Below, one piece after another: positions 1 through 60,511 of a DNA stretch of 64,000 nucleotides. The notes beneath the pieces are model-generated. The model had not been told where the DNA came from and ran no database searches. It saw nothing but the letters and a program-made list of their open reading frames with translations. Origin of the DNA: an uncultured Gemmata sp. (GTDB lineage Bacteria > Planctomycetota > Planctomycetia > Gemmatales > Gemmataceae); contig CALDUT010000016.1 in the NCBI GenBank assembly GCA_937924775.1, positions 62,001 to 126,000 of the forward strand, given 5' to 3'. How positions within the stretch are numbered: the first letter of the stretch is position 1; each line of letters begins with the position of its first letter. The translations under genes were made by a program, and so were the position numbers.

Positions 1-4643
<4,643 letters not shown>

Positions 4644-16698: not shown

Positions 16699-17844
16699 TC
16701 AGACGACGGAAAAGGTGCTGATTTCCCGCGGCAGCGTACTCAGTAACCGGTAACCGTCGTGCGTGACCAACACATCATCCTCGATGCGTACGCCGCCCCA
16801 ACCCGGAATGTAGATCGCCGGTTCGATGGTAATCACCATGCCCGATTCCAGAACGTCTTCCGAGTTGGCCCGAATCTTGGGCGCTTCGTGCACCTCCAAG
16901 CCGATGCCATGCCCCAAGCCATGGGTGAAGTAATCGGCCAAATTGCCTTCGGGGGCGCGGTGGATTTTGGCCGTGGCGATGGCTTTGCGGGCAGCGGCGT
17001 CGACATCTTGGGCTTTCACCCCAGGGCGAATCATGGCCAGCGCCGCGTTTTGGGCGTTGAGGACCACCTGATAAATCTCTTCGAAGTCGTAACCGACACG
17101 TTCCATCTTGTTGCGGCGGCTGGGCGCGGTTCCGAAAGGGCTGCGCAGAGTGCGGGTCAGATCCGACTTGTACAGCAGGTCGGCTCCCCAATCGACAAGG
17201 AGCTTACTGCCTTCGCTCAATTGCCGAGTGGTGGGCGGGGCATGCGGCAATGCCCCGCGGTCGCCGACCGCCACAATTGGCGGGAAGGACGAACCGCGGG
17301 CCCCAGCGCGGCGGATGTAGTTCTCGAGGGCATCGACCATGTCCTTTTCCGTGTCGGCCTCGCGGAGCGTGGCGATAAACATGCGGAAGGCCCGTTCGGC
17401 CACCCGGACCGAGTCTTCGATCTTCTGGACTTCACTGGGGTCTTTGATCACCCGCTGCGCTTCAATCACCCCGCTGAGCGGGACGAAATGGATTTTCGGA
17501 GCCAACGCCTTGAGTTGCTCCAATTCCCCCCAGGTTAAACGATTCCCCTCAACACCGACCGATTTAACCCCCGCTTTGGTCAGCACTTCCGCCGTCGCTT
17601 CGAACGTGGTGCGGTGGTGCGGACGGATCTGAGCGTCCAAATCGCCGCATTCATCCTTGATCTGCTCTTCAAAGCGACTGTCACTGATCAGCAGACCGTT
17701 TTTCACAGTGGTGAAGAAAGTGTCTTCACCCGTGAAACCAGTCAGGTAGGTGACATTCACCGGTGTGGTGACCAGAAACGCATCCACACCGTGGGTTTTG
17801 AGGGTCCGAGTCAATACGGCACGACGTTCAAGGAGGTAGTTCAT
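16699..17844 (-). CDS. M24 family Xaa-Pro peptidase
   Basis: LLVDWGADLLYKSDLTRTL..THGLGHGIGLEVHEAPKI..SGMVITIEPAIYIPGWGGVRIEDDVLV. Confidence 0.94.
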   Translation of the reverse strand: MNYLLERRAVLTRTLKTHGVDAFLVTTPVNVTYLTGFTGEDTFFTTVKNGLLISDSRFEEQIKDECGDLDAQIRPHHRTTFEATAEVLTKAGVKSVGVEGNRLTWGELEQLKALAPKIHFVPLSGVIEAQRVIKDPSEVQKIEDSVRVAERAFRMFIATLREADTEKDMVDALENYIRRAGARGSSFPPIVAVGDRGALPHAPPTTRQLSEGSKLLVDWGADLLYKSDLTRTLRSPFGTAPSRRNKMERVGYDFEEIYQVVLNAQNAALAMIRPGVKAQDVDAAARKAIATAKIHRAPEGNLADYFTHGLGHGIGLEVHEAPKIRANSEDVLESGMVITIEPAIYIPGWGGVRIEDDVLVTHDGYRLLSTLPREISTFSVV

Positions 17845-18081
17845 ACAAGCGTTAGTGCAATTAAGGTGCGGTAATACTTGATTGATCCATCAAGCGATCA
17901 ACGCCTTTTCATAACACAGGCGTTTCACACAAAATTAAAGGTGTTAATATCTTGTGTGGCATGAGAATTCAACAATCGACTGAAATATTTTAAGCGGTTT
18001 CTGTCGCGAATTTCATTGAGAGCTGAATTCGGATCAACCAAGATATAAAGCTCAAGTCCCCCTAACATACAGTGGCGGTAA

Positions 18082-52804: not shown

Positions 52805-52967
52805 CTCACCACTCCCCTCGGGCCTGTCATCGCGTGGGGGAGCGGTACCCGGGGGCACTACGGAGGAACTCGTCCATCCCCCAAAGGCCCGAGACTTGTC
52901 GTCCCAAGATAGTGGCTGAGTCCCCAAAATTGAGGAGATTGTCCTTGCGGTTGCGACGAACTTGTGT

Positions 52968-52989
52968 TATTTCATGAATTGATGAAATA
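52968..52989. promoter_or_regulatory. Candidate ArsR/SmtB operator
   Basis: TATTTCAT-gaattg-ATGAAATA, perfect 8-bp inverted repeat 7 nt upstream of the regulator start. Confidence 0.7.
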
Positions 52990-52996
52990 CTGAGTT

Positions 52997-53392
52997 GTGA
53001 AAATGATGAATTCCGAGCACCACCCAGTCTGTTCCCATACACTGGCCGCGATCCCCGGGCCGCCGCTGGCCGATCCGGAATCGCTCGAACGGTCTGCACG
53101 GCTCTTTCGTGCCCTGGGCGATGCGCCGCGGTTGCGGATTTTGCACTTGTTGTTACGTGGAGAAACCTGTGTCAGTGAAATCGTGACCGCGACCGCCGAA
53201 AAATTCTCCACCATCTCCCAACGCCTGCGGATTCTGCGCAGTGAAGGCTTGGTTCGCCGGCGGCGCGATGGTTCGCATGTGTATTACGCCTTGGCCGACG
53301 ACCACGTCAAAGACCTGGTCTTCAACGCCTTGGCACATGCTCGGGAATTGGATTCGCCCACGATTTCTCAACCCCAGTCGGAGGACGACTGA
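52997..53392 (+). CDS. ArsR/SmtB family regulator, probable zinc sensor
   Basis: LFRALGDAPRLRILHLLLRGETCVSEI..STISQRLRILRSEGLVRRRRDGSHVYYAL; alpha-5 DDHVKDLVFNALAHARE matches DxH..HxxE. Confidence 0.92.
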   Translation: MKMMNSEHHPVCSHTLAAIPGPPLADPESLERSARLFRALGDAPRLRILHLLLRGETCVSEIVTATAEKFSTISQRLRILRSEGLVRRRRDGSHVYYALADDHVKDLVFNALAHARELDSPTISQPQSEDD

Positions 53393-53745
53393 TGACGATT
53401 CCTGTTTGCCATCCCCATCACCACCACACGCACGGCCCCGGCTGCGGGCACACCGGCATTCAGCACGGCGACCATGTGTGTTACGTTCACGATGGGCATT
53501 TGCATTTCACTGCGGCCGACGGCAGCGTGCACGAACACACCTTGGATGTGAACGCGATCAACCCCGGCGGTTGCTCCGGCGGCCATACCTGCACGGCCCA
53601 CGCGGCGGGGCATGTGCATGGCCCCGGCTGTGGCCACGAAGCAGTTCCGCATGGCGACCATATCTGCTACATCGTCGATGGCCACTTGCACTATCCGCAC
53701 AATGGCCATTGCGATCATCACGGCCCGGTCAGCGTGGTGGCCTGA
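53392..53745 (+). CDS. His/Cys-rich putative metal-binding protein with internal duplication
   Basis: MTIPVCHPHHHHTHGPGCGHTGIQHGDHVCYVHDGHLHF..GPGCGHEAVPHGDHICYIVDGHLHYPHNGHCDHHG; start overlaps upstream stop (TGATG). Confidence 0.9.
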   Translation: MTIPVCHPHHHHTHGPGCGHTGIQHGDHVCYVHDGHLHFTAADGSVHEHTLDVNAINPGGCSGGHTCTAHAAGHVHGPGCGHEAVPHGDHICYIVDGHLHYPHNGHCDHHGPVSVVA

Positions 53746-53815
53746 CAGCCGCGGTCCGATGGACCTTCTCGGAAATGTGCCGTTCCGACCCCGCTGGGGA
53801 TTCTCGTTGAATCTC

Positions 53816-53899
53816 CAGCGGTTTTTGTTGCTAGCCCCCAACAGATTGGGGCGGAATCAGCAGCGGGTTTTGTTGTCGGTCCCGAACAGGGTTGTGCGG
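53816..53899. repeat. 39-bp imperfect direct repeat, 45-bp period
   Basis: CAGCGGTTTTTGTTGCTAGCCCCCAACAGATTGGGGCGG (53816-53854) and CAGCGGGTTTTGTTGTCGGTCCCGAACAGGGTTGTGCGG (53861-53899). Confidence 0.7.
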
Positions 53900-53931: not shown

Positions 53932-55053
<1,122 letters not shown>

Positions 55054-57595: not shown

Positions 57596-57979
57596 ATGCC
57601 GCGTATTCAAGGCGTTGACATTCCCCCCAAAAAACTCTTGCACATTTCCTTGCGCTACATCCGCGGGATCGGCCCGACCACGTCGCTGGAAGTGTGCGAG
57701 AAGCTCAAACTCGACCCCATGCGCCGGGCCGACACGCTGACCGACAAAGAAATCGCGGAAATCGCGGCCCTGCTCGATAAGGAATACCTTGTCGAAGGTC
57801 CGCTGCGCCGGATGGAAGCCGCGAATATTGCCCGCTTGAAGGAAATCAAATGCTACCGAGGCGAGCGGCACCGCAAGAACCTGCCGGTCCGCGGTCAACG
57901 CACCAAGACCAATGCCCGCACCCGCAAAGGTCCACGGAAAACCGTCGCGGGTAAAAAGGGCGTCAAAGACCTGCGCTAA
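57596..57979 (+). CDS. rpsM: 30S ribosomal protein S13
   Basis: MPRIQGVDIPPKKLLHISLRYIRGIG..RGQRTKTNARTRKGPRKTV. Confidence 0.98.
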   Translation: MPRIQGVDIPPKKLLHISLRYIRGIGPTTSLEVCEKLKLDPMRRADTLTDKEIAEIAALLDKEYLVEGPLRRMEAANIARLKEIKCYRGERHRKNLPVRGQRTKTNARTRKGPRKTVAGKKGVKDLR

Positions 57980-58083
57980 TCGCCTCCCGTTGGCGGTCAG
58001 CAAGCCCGCGGCGGGCCTCATGATCGGTTACCGCGTATTACTGTCACCGGAACATACGAACTTATTGAACCCGCAAAGTTGCT

Positions 58084-58464
58084 ATGGCGAAGAGCAAAAA
58101 GAAGAAAACACGGCGGAACGTCAGCCGGGGCATTGCTCATGTCCAAAGTACGTTCAACAACACGATTGTGACCATCACCGATACCAACGGCGATACCCTG
58201 TGCCACTCCTCCGGGGGCGCTGTGGGCTTCAAAGGCAGCCGCAAAAGTACTCCCTTCGCCGCGCAGCGGGCCGCCGAAGAGGCCGCGGCCAAGGCCGCGA
58301 AATTCGGTGTGAAAGAAATTGAAGTCCGTGTGAAAGGACCGGGCGCGGGCCGCGAATCGGCCATCACCGCCCTGCAAGCGGCTGGGCTGAACATCAAAGC
58401 GATCGAAGATGTCACCCCCCTGCCGCACAACGGTTGCCGCCCGCCGAAGAAACGTCGCGTCTAA
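58084..58464 (+). CDS. rpsK: 30S ribosomal protein S11
   Basis: [61 protein letters not shown]. Confidence 0.98.
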
Positions 58465-58487
58465 ACTCGTGTGAGTGGCTCGCCGAC

Positions 58488-58529
58488 GGTGGTCAGTGGT
58501 CGCTTGCTTCGGCAACGCCGCTGACCACC
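58488..58529 (+). promoter_or_regulatory. Long hairpin with C(UUCG)G tetraloop between rpsK and rpsD
   Basis: GGTGGTCAG..TTGC-TTCG-GCAA..CTGACCACC. Confidence 0.65.
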
Positions 58530-58660
58530 CTGTTGTTGGTGGATGATCCGCTGTGACGCAGGGGTTCGCCCGGACCATCCCCCCAACCGACCGGCCAGCC
58601 CTCCTTGTCGACCCGCGCTGCGGGTCTATTGACCCCTGGTGGGACATTCCTGAACTTTCC

Positions 58661-59299
58661 ATGGCACGAACACTTGATCCCAAATGCAAACTCTGCCGCC
58701 GGGAACAGATGAAACTGTTCCTCAAAGGCGACCGCTGCTTCAGCCCCAAATGCCCCATCGATCGCGAAAAACCTCCACCCGGCATGCACGGGACTCGTCG
58801 GGGTAAAATCTCCGAATACGGCCTGCGTCTTCGTGAAAAGCAAAAACTCAAACGCTTCTACGGCGTTCTCGAAGCGCAGTTCCGCCGCTACTACCGCCTG
58901 GCCACCAAAACCGTGGGCAACACCGGCGAACAATTGCTCTCGATTCTGGAACGGCGCTTGGATAATGTCGTTCACCGGCTCGGTTTTGCCATCAACCGCA
59001 ACACCGCGCGGCAAATGGTGGTCCACGGCCACATTCTGGTCAATGGGGTCAAGTGCGACATTCCTAGCATGTTGGTGAAACCCGGGGATGTCATCAAAGT
59101 GAAGACCCGCGAAAAAAGCCTGAAAATGGCCCGCGAAACACTGGCCAAAGGCACTGTGCGGATTCCCGACTTCCTGGAATTGACCAACAACCAGGAAGCC
59201 CCCGAAGGCCGCATGACCCGCTTGCCAACCCGCCAAGATGTCGATGAACGCATCACCGACATCCGCGAACAACTCATCATCGAAATCGCCACGCGGTAA
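58661..59299 (+). CDS. rpsD: 30S ribosomal protein S4
   Basis: MARTLDPKCKLCRREQMKLFLKGDRCFSPKCPIDREKPPPGMHG; Cys-containing N-terminus. Confidence 0.97.
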   Translation: MARTLDPKCKLCRREQMKLFLKGDRCFSPKCPIDREKPPPGMHGTRRGKISEYGLRLREKQKLKRFYGVLEAQFRRYYRLATKTVGNTGEQLLSILERRLDNVVHRLGFAINRNTARQMVVHGHILVNGVKCDIPSMLVKPGDVIKVKTREKSLKMARETLAKGTVRIPDFLELTNNQEAPEGRMTRLPTRQDVDERITDIREQLIIEIATR

Positions 59300-59323
59300 G
59301 GCACAGCAGCTGCCATTCGATCA

Positions 59324-59353
59324 CGTCGGCCCGTGGCGGCATCCTCGGGCCGA
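59324..59353 (+). promoter_or_regulatory. Stem-loop in rpsD-rpoA spacer (1)
   Basis: GTCGGCCCG-12 nt-CGGGCCGAC, perfect 9-bp stem. Confidence 0.55.
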
Positions 59354-59402
59354 CCCCCCACCGCCCCGGCGGTGCGCGACCCACTGCCGGTTCCGTTTTG
59401 CG

Positions 59403-59426
59403 GATGTCGGCGAGCCCGCCGACATC
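59403..59426 (+). promoter_or_regulatory. Stem-loop in rpsD-rpoA spacer (2)
   Basis: GATGTCGGCG-AGCC-CGCCGACATC, perfect 10-bp stem. Confidence 0.6.
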
Positions 59427-59500
59427 GCTTCTCCGTCTGGCTCGTTGCGCCTGTGGTCGCCGGGTGGCAGCGGAAAGCCGACGGTTTGGAGGATACCATC

Positions 59501-60511
59501 ATGCGCGTTCGTTGGCGCGGATTAGAACTACCCAGTCGCGTCCACGCAGATCGCTCTGCGGGGCTGAGCGATACTTACGGCAAATTCTATGCGGAACCTT
59601 TTGAAAAAGGCTTCGGCATGACCATCGGCAACAGCCTCCGCCGCATTCTCTTGTCCAGCCTCGAAGGCAGTGCCGTCACCCGCGTCAAAATCCAAGGCGT
59701 TCAGCACGAAATCTCCACGATCACCGGCGTGGTCGAAGATGTGACCGACATCATCCTCAACATCAAAAGCTTGGTGGTGAAGAATCTGTCGGATCAACCC
59801 AAGACCATCCGCATTCAAAAGCATGAAGCCGGTTCGGTTCGCGCGGTCGATATTCAACATGATGAAACGATCCAAATCATCAACCCCGAACACCACATCG
59901 CTACACTCACGAGCGATGTGCCGTTTGTCATGGAAATGACCGTCGAGAATGGCCGCGGCTACCGTACCGCCGACGAAAACGCCGGCAAGGAGCGGGAAAT
60001 TGGCGTCATCCCCGTGGATAGCAGCTTCTCGCCCGTGGTGCGGGTCAAGTACGACATTGAAGAAACCCGCGTCGGCCAGCGCACCAACTACGACCGGCTG
60101 GTGATGGAAATCTGGACCAACGGTACTGTCACACCGCAGATGGCTTTGGTCGAAGCCGCGAAAATCCTCCGCAAACACCTCAACCCGTTTGTGCAATACA
60201 CAGAACCAGGGCCGGAAGTGCCGCTCGATGAGCCCATCGAGATCGGGCCGGCGGCCTCGGTGGCCGATGCCCAATTGGCCGAACTCGAACGCAAGCTCAA
60301 CATGAGCCTGGCGGAACTCGATCTGTCGGTCCGGGCCACCAACTGTCTGGAAAGCGAAGGAATCACCACCGTGCGGGAACTGGTGATCCGCACGGAAGAT
60401 GAATTGCTCGAAGTTCGCAACTTCGGGGATACCACGCTCCGCGAAGTCAAGGCCAAGCTCGCTGAGCGGGGCCTGTCGCTGGGGATGCGTCTGCCGCCCC
60501 CGCGCCGTTGA
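59501..60511 (+). CDS. rpoA: DNA-directed RNA polymerase alpha subunit
   Basis: [49 protein letters not shown]-terminal domain [23 protein letters not shown]. Confidence 0.98.

What the first reader, a model, noticed from the sequence alone, without database searches (positions are those of the whole stretch)
52968..53745. Putative SmtB-type zinc operon in which a His/Cys-rich repeat protein replaces metallothionein
Seen: the regulator's last helix DDHVKDLVFNALAHARE has D-x-H-x10-H-x2-E, matching the alpha-5 Zn(II) site of SmtB/CzrA. The alpha-3N region has a single Cys (ETCVSEI), so an alpha-3N Cd/Pb site looks degenerate. The start codon of a 117-aa protein with 27 His and 8 Cys overlaps the regulator stop (TGATG). 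Inference: a coupled zinc sensor plus zinc buffer/chaperone, analogous in logic to SmtB-SmtA but with a His-based rather than Cys-based sink.
Basis: partly seen in the sequence, partly recalled or inferred. Interest (0 to 1): 0.78.

Follow-up and report, generated by a model that had tools for sequence, protein, structure and literature searches.

The report
Zinc-sensor and histidine-rich sink operon
A planctomycete bacterium carries a tiny self-contained two-gene switch, a zinc-type sensor followed by an unstudied histidine-rich protein likely to soak up metal, and the same pair, with a matching control site and sometimes fused into one gene, recurs in unrelated bacteria.

Summary
Window 53003-53392 encodes an SmtB-like ArsR repressor with an intact alpha-5 site (D99-x-H101-x10-H112-x2-E115). 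Its stop codon overlaps the start of a 117-aa protein with 27 His and 8 Cys, built from two copies of one repeat. The His-rich protein belongs to a conserved family with no Pfam or NCBIfam model and no PDB relative by sequence. It occurs in Planctomycetota (42 of 95 genomes of the host's own family), Acidobacteriota, Verrucomicrobiota, Pseudomonadota, Bacillota and Actinomycetota. Of 75 family loci, 41 have an alpha-5 ArsR directly upstream and 3 are fused to one; all 44 regulators keep D-x-H-x10-H. Most paired promoters share a 12-2-12 operator. Several loci sit beside ZIP, CDF, ZnuA or COG0523 genes. Best reading: an autoregulated zinc-responsive repressor that induces a cytosolic His/Cys metal sink when zinc is in excess. 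Metal identity, binding and induction remain untested. This is a new sink family in a known operon logic (SmtB-SmtA, BxmR-BmtA).

The parts
52966..52991 (.). Predicted ArsR operator, 26-bp imperfect inverted repeat (12-2-12): GTTATTTCATGAATTGATGAAATACT
   Evidence: Found as a palindrome; scored p=0.0025 by a matrix trained only on sites from other families; the core pattern has its only 0-mismatch match in the 4.8-Mb genome here
53003..53392 (+). ArsR/SmtB-family repressor, 129 aa (alternative GTG start at 52997)
   Evidence: NF033788 E 4.8e-25 over cut-off; PF01022 E 3.8e-11; best solved structure SmtB 1r1t E 7.6e-18
53297..53347 (+). Alpha-5 metal site D99, H101, H112, E115
   Evidence: Aligns with the SmtB alpha-5 residues; D-x-H-x10-H kept in all 41 paired regulators
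53030..53032 (+). Cys10 of the N-terminal arm (SmtB Cys14 position)
   Evidence: Alignment
53168..53170 (+). Cys56 of the alpha-3 region (SmtB Cys61 position)
   Evidence: Alignment
53392..53745 (+). His-rich protein, 117 aa, 27 His, 8 Cys; start overlaps the regulator stop (TGATG)
   Evidence: family alignment; no Pfam or NCBIfam family
53425..53508 (+). Repeat 1 (residues 12-39, HTHGPGCGHTGIQHGDHVCYVHDGHLHF)
   Evidence: Internal alignment
53611..53694 (+). Repeat 2 (residues 74-101, HVHGPGCGHEAVPHGDHICYIVDGHLHY)
   Evidence: Internal alignment
53791..53821 (+). Intrinsic-terminator-like hairpin (13 pairs) followed by T5, closing the operon
   Evidence: consensus match only, 1.1 expected by chance in the scanned region on both strands

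Best explanation
This is an autoregulated metal-stress operon. An SmtB-type dimer binds the 12-2-12 operator next to its own start codon and represses both genes. When cytosolic zinc (possibly also Co or Cd) is in excess, the metal binds the alpha-5 site between the dimer's C-terminal helices and the repressor leaves the DNA. The His-rich protein, translationally coupled to the regulator, is then made and binds the surplus metal in two repeat modules with His, Cys and Asp donors. Free metal falls and repression returns. Shown: gene order, overlap, alpha-5 motif, shared operator sequence, conserved pairing and fusion. Inferred: zinc as the metal, derepression by metal, and metal binding by the His-rich protein.
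For: The regulator's best solved match is SmtB, and the alpha-5 motif is kept in 41 of 41 paired regulators but in 0 of 5 other ArsR proteins inspected in this genome. Pairing: 29 of 57 loci have an upstream ArsR, and one more of these is a fused ORF, L082; in the host family 12 of 18 new loci are paired and 2 more are fused. Regulator and sink diverge together (Mantel r 0.77, p 0.0002). A 12-2-12 operator lies upstream in 26 of 29 paired loci at leave-one-out p of 0.05 or less. A matrix trained without the host family finds the window site at p=0.0025. Zinc genes next to family members: a CDF gene follows L074, CDF and ZIP flank the fusion L082, ZIP and COG0523 flank L009, ZnuA is next to L089 and L044, ZnuABC next to L022. 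AzuR, an alpha-5 SmtB relative, binds a 12-2-12 site of a metallothionein promoter and is released by Zn and other metals (PMC8790569).
Against: No zinc gene lies beside the window copy. About 40% of family loci have no adjacent ArsR, so the His-rich protein can work without it. Some of these sit by zinc-uptake genes, which a pure detoxification sink would not predict. Zinc-gene enrichment in 16-kb regions over control regions is only borderline (10 of 40 against 1 of 20, p=0.056). There are no binding or expression data.
Confidence: 0.68

Rival explanations
1. The His-rich protein is a zinc reserve or chaperone that hands metal to client proteins or COG0523 GTPases, and matters in scarcity as much as in excess; the ArsR partner only sets its amount.
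For: Members next to ZnuA/ZnuB/ZnuC (L022, L089, L125-L127) and COG0523 genes (L009, L023, L130, L159, L162). Many Pseudomonadota members lack an ArsR. C. metallidurans CobW2, with a His-rich region, is described as a zinc-storage compound (PMC11340326).
Against: No convincing Zur-like box was found upstream of the unpaired copies tested, although the znuA-like gene of L112 shows a clear one by eye. In the host family the gene is mostly tied to an alpha-5 ArsR, whose known relatives respond to excess.
Confidence: 0.17
2. The His-rich protein is a partner of the regulator: it passes metal to or takes metal from the alpha-5 site and so tunes the sensor, in addition to buffering.
For: Three ORFs fuse the regulator directly to the His-rich domain: L082 in Acidobacteriota, L152 and L157 in the host family. 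Correlated divergence of the two proteins. One-base overlap of the genes.
Against: Fusions are rare (3 of 75) and two are from one genus. Co-divergence also follows from joint inheritance. Unpaired copies exist.
Confidence: 0.1
3. The operon handles nickel or cobalt, as in His-rich nickel stores, and not zinc.
For: His-rich proteins bind Ni and Co well in general (own knowledge); ArsR-family Ni/Co sensors exist (NmtR, 2lkp, E 6.3e-10).
Against: The best match is SmtB, and the four-ligand D-H-H-E site lacks the extra C-terminal His ligands that NmtR uses (own knowledge). All recognised metal-gene neighbours were zinc-type families, though only those families were sought.
Confidence: 0.05

Closest known systems
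SmtB-SmtA divergon of Synechococcus PCC 7942
   Same: Alpha-5 SmtB-type repressor controlling a small metal-binding protein through a 12-2-12 operator
   Different: Here one co-directional overlapping operon and not a divergon; the sink is His-dominated and has no PF02069 match
BxmR-BmtA operon of Oscillatoria brevis (cited in PMC8790569)
   Same: Regulator and metal sink of one system in an operon
   Different: BmtA is a Cys-rich metallothionein; [quoted passage not shown]
AzuR-NmtA of Anabaena PCC 7120 (PMC8790569)
   Same: Alpha-5-only SmtB relative with DxHx10Hx2E, single Cys in alpha-3 and at the N terminus, 12-2-12 site upstream of the sink gene
   Different: Regulator and metallothionein genes are far apart; the sink is Cys-based
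His-rich regions of COG0523 GTPases (CobW2/CobW3 of C. metallidurans, PMC11340326)
   Same: His-rich zinc-binding or storage segments in zinc homeostasis; COG0523 genes flank several family members
   Different: Those are GTPases of the Zur regulon; here a stand-alone 117-aa repeat protein behind an ArsR gene

Membership tests
SmtB/ArsR metalloregulator, alpha-5 group | ArsR-type winged helix-turn-helix | tested here: met
   PF01022 and NF033788 above cut-offs; SmtB 1r1t E 7.6e-18
SmtB/ArsR metalloregulator, alpha-5 group | DxHx10Hx2E ligand motif in the last helix | tested here: met
   D99, H101, H112, E115 aligned to SmtB
SmtB/ArsR metalloregulator, alpha-5 group | 12-2-12 inverted repeat in the operator/promoter | tested here: met
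   Site 52966-52991, p=0.0025 with a matrix from other families; predicted, not bound in vitro
SmtB/ArsR metalloregulator, alpha-5 group | Metal-dependent release from DNA | not testable with these tools
   Needs EMSA or reporter assay
SmtB/ArsR metalloregulator, alpha-3N group | Two Cys in alpha-3 (Cx1-2C) plus N-terminal Cys (definition from PMC8790569) | tested here: not met
   One alpha-3 Cys (C56) plus C10; CxC in 0 of 41 paired regulators
Prokaryotic metallothionein (PF02069) | Match to the family profile | tested here: not met
   No match of the 117-aa protein nor anywhere in the genome
Prokaryotic metallothionein (PF02069) | Binds several metal ions in a cluster | not testable with these tools
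   Needs metal titration or mass spectrometry

The most novel reading that the evidence does not exclude
The His-rich family is a new two-module metal-binding fold that acts as a dedicated partner of its sensor: covalently fused in some species, it donates metal to or withdraws it from the alpha-5 site, so that sensor and buffer form one homeostat.
Probability: 0.15. Interest if true: 0.78.

Novelty: new variant of a known kind. Interest (0 to 1): 0.6.

Why it matters
Known bacterial zinc sinks under SmtB-type control are Cys-rich metallothioneins. A widespread, unnamed His-based sink under the same kind of regulator would suggest that many bacteria solved zinc buffering in a second way. It would give a function to a protein family that databases leave as 'hypothetical' or misname 'zinc transporter permease'. 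The closed two-gene operon with its own operator is a compact candidate metal biosensor.

Tried and rejected
Zur control of unpaired copies: a scan of 24 upstream regions for Zur-like boxes gave nothing beyond one weak hit. Fold comparison: the AlphaFold model (pLDDT 79.6, pTM 0.70, two beta modules) had no PDB match below E 1.4; the five models ranged from 47 to 79.6 and only 12 sequences were used, so the fold is provisional. Palindrome test alone: too weak locus by locus; replaced by a leave-one-out matrix and validation on loci not used before. Regulon search in this genome: no second strong copy of the operator. Zinc genes in 16-kb regions: only borderline over controls. Literature: no paper with the family's sequence motifs or with a His-rich protein in an SmtB operon was found in the held library. 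PADLOC: only generic HTH matches for the regulator, none for the His-rich protein.

Full report
What is there. The span 52966-53821 is a compact two-gene operon. At 53003-53392 lies a 129-aa ArsR-family protein. At 53392-53745 lies a 117-aa protein with 27 His, 8 Cys and no Lys or Arg. The TGA of the first and the ATG of the second share one base. A hairpin of 13 pairs followed by T5 lies at 53791-53821, and the next gene, mnmA, starts at 53932. Upstream of the regulator, at 52966-52991, is the inverted repeat GTTATTTCATGAATTGATGAAATACT. The genes around (DUF2617, a TIGR02996-domain protein, mnmA) have no evident metal role.

The regulator. It scores above the cut-offs of PF01022 and of the NCBIfam metalloregulator model. 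Its best solved relative is SmtB (1r1t, E 7.6e-18), with alignment over almost the whole length. The alpha-5 ligands D99, H101, H112 and E115 fall on the SmtB ones. Cys10 and Cys56 fall on SmtB Cys14 and Cys61 (SmtB numbering from own knowledge). A published comparison treats one alpha-3 Cys plus one N-terminal Cys as no functional alpha-3N site (AzuR, PMC8790569), so the functional conclusion of an alpha-5 sensor holds. Across 41 paired regulators D-x-H-x10-H is present in 41, a single alpha-3 Cys in 39, an N-terminal Cys in 35 and CxC in none. Five other ArsR proteins inspected in this genome lack the alpha-5 motif.

The His-rich protein. It is two copies of a 28-residue unit (HxHGPGCGH....HGDHxCYxxDGHLH) joined by a linker. 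An alignment of 18 relatives has 23 invariant columns, 13 of them His and two Cys. No Pfam or NCBIfam family covers it or its relatives, and no PDB sequence is similar. The model predicts two beta modules with fair confidence and has no match in the PDB; it rests on 12 sequences. Most members have no signal peptide by eye; L076 and L077 start with one.

Distribution. There is one copy in this genome. The family was found in 17 of 393 Planctomycetota, 7 of 399 Pseudomonadota, 12 of 247 Acidobacteriota and 42 of 95 genomes of the host's own family. Further hits lie in a Verrucomicrobia MAG and on plasmids of Pantoea, Paraburkholderia, Cupriavidus, Vibrio, Pediococcus, Enterococcus, Streptomyces and Rhodococcus. 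On two of the plasmids inspected the ArsR gene next to it is annotated (Pantoea, Pediococcus).

Pairing. The family searches used the His-rich protein only, so pairing was not selected for. Of 57 loci, 29 have an ArsR directly upstream on the same strand. L082 in the same set is a single ORF of both parts. Of 18 further loci of the host family, 12 are paired and 2 (L152, L157) are fused (L153 repeats L008 and was left out). Total: 41 paired and 3 fused of 75. The three fused ORFs keep the alpha-5 motif as well (read from the sequences). Loci are related to each other, so these are not independent events, and a few loci (L019, L090) are fragments. In most pairs the genes overlap or abut: 26 of 41, with 11 more within 60 bases. 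Sequence distances of the two partners correlate (Mantel r 0.77), which fits joint inheritance.

Operator. A symmetric 26-base matrix found a site upstream of 26 of 29 paired regulators at p of 0.05 or less, each scored without its close relatives. The matrix was refined over several rounds, so these p values are somewhat optimistic. As a cleaner test, a matrix from 20 sites outside the host family was applied to host-family loci. It picked the window site at p=0.0025 and reached 0.05 or less in most of the others, and gave nothing around the six other ArsR-like genes of this genome. Near-perfect examples such as AACACTTGAACA-AC-TGTTCAAGTGTT (L014) have the 12-2-12 layout reported for SmtB-type operators (PMC8790569). 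The core of the window site has its only exact match in the genome here, so the regulator probably controls only its own operon.

Zinc context elsewhere. Zinc genes confirmed by Pfam or strong similarity lie next to several members: CDF after L074; CDF and ZIP on the two sides of the fusion L082; ZIP and COG0523 beside L009; ZIP beside L096 (the longer copy of L035); ZnuA beside L089 and L128 (the longer copy of L044); COG0523 beside L130 (the longer copy of L032). ZnuABC lies beside L022 and COG0523 plus WD40 beside L023 by annotation (COG0523 there from the GTP-binding annotation). COG0523-like ORFs flank L159 and L162. In 16-kb regions the excess over control regions is borderline (10 of 40 against 1 of 20, p=0.056). 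The link is to zinc as such, with both export and uptake genes.

Mechanism. The best reading is an autoregulated repressor released by excess zinc, which raises a His/Cys sink. The steps from DNA sequence to predicted repression are supported by comparison; metal identity, release and binding are inference. The uptake-gene neighbours and ArsR-free copies leave room for a reserve or chaperone role. The fusions leave room for direct exchange of metal between sink and sensor.

Known or new. The logic is that of SmtB-SmtA and BxmR-BmtA. The sink is not a metallothionein by profile, and no description of this family or pair was found in the held papers, which do not include most subscription journals. 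I rate it a new variant of a known kind.

Noticed in passing
window 17873-17898: Palindrome AATACTTGATTGATCCATCAAGCGAT scores as high as the real operator with the cross-family matrix; it lies about 28 bases upstream of an ORF (16699-17844, minus strand) that reads like an Xaa-Pro peptidase. It does not match the host-family form of the site and may be chance or another regulator's site.
   Followed up: partly
L082:1492-2256, L152:1495-2250, L157:1495-2085: Natural single ORFs in which the ArsR regulator runs straight into the His-rich domain.
   Followed up: partly
L076:1486-1896 and L077:1435-1782: Family members that begin with an apparent signal peptide, suggesting exported versions.
   Followed up: no
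L027:3965-4114: A 49-residue single-repeat relative on a Rhodococcus plasmid is annotated 'zinc transporter permease', which its size and sequence do not support.
   Followed up: no
L112, upstream of the ZnuA-like ORF (792-1892, minus strand): A clear Zur-type palindrome (ATGTTATGTTATAACATAAC) before a znuA-like gene about 6 kb from an unpaired family member; none before the family member itself.
   Followed up: partly
window 57596-60511: Ribosomal protein and RNA polymerase alpha-like genes follow downstream of the operon region (read from the ORF list, not tested).
   Followed up: no
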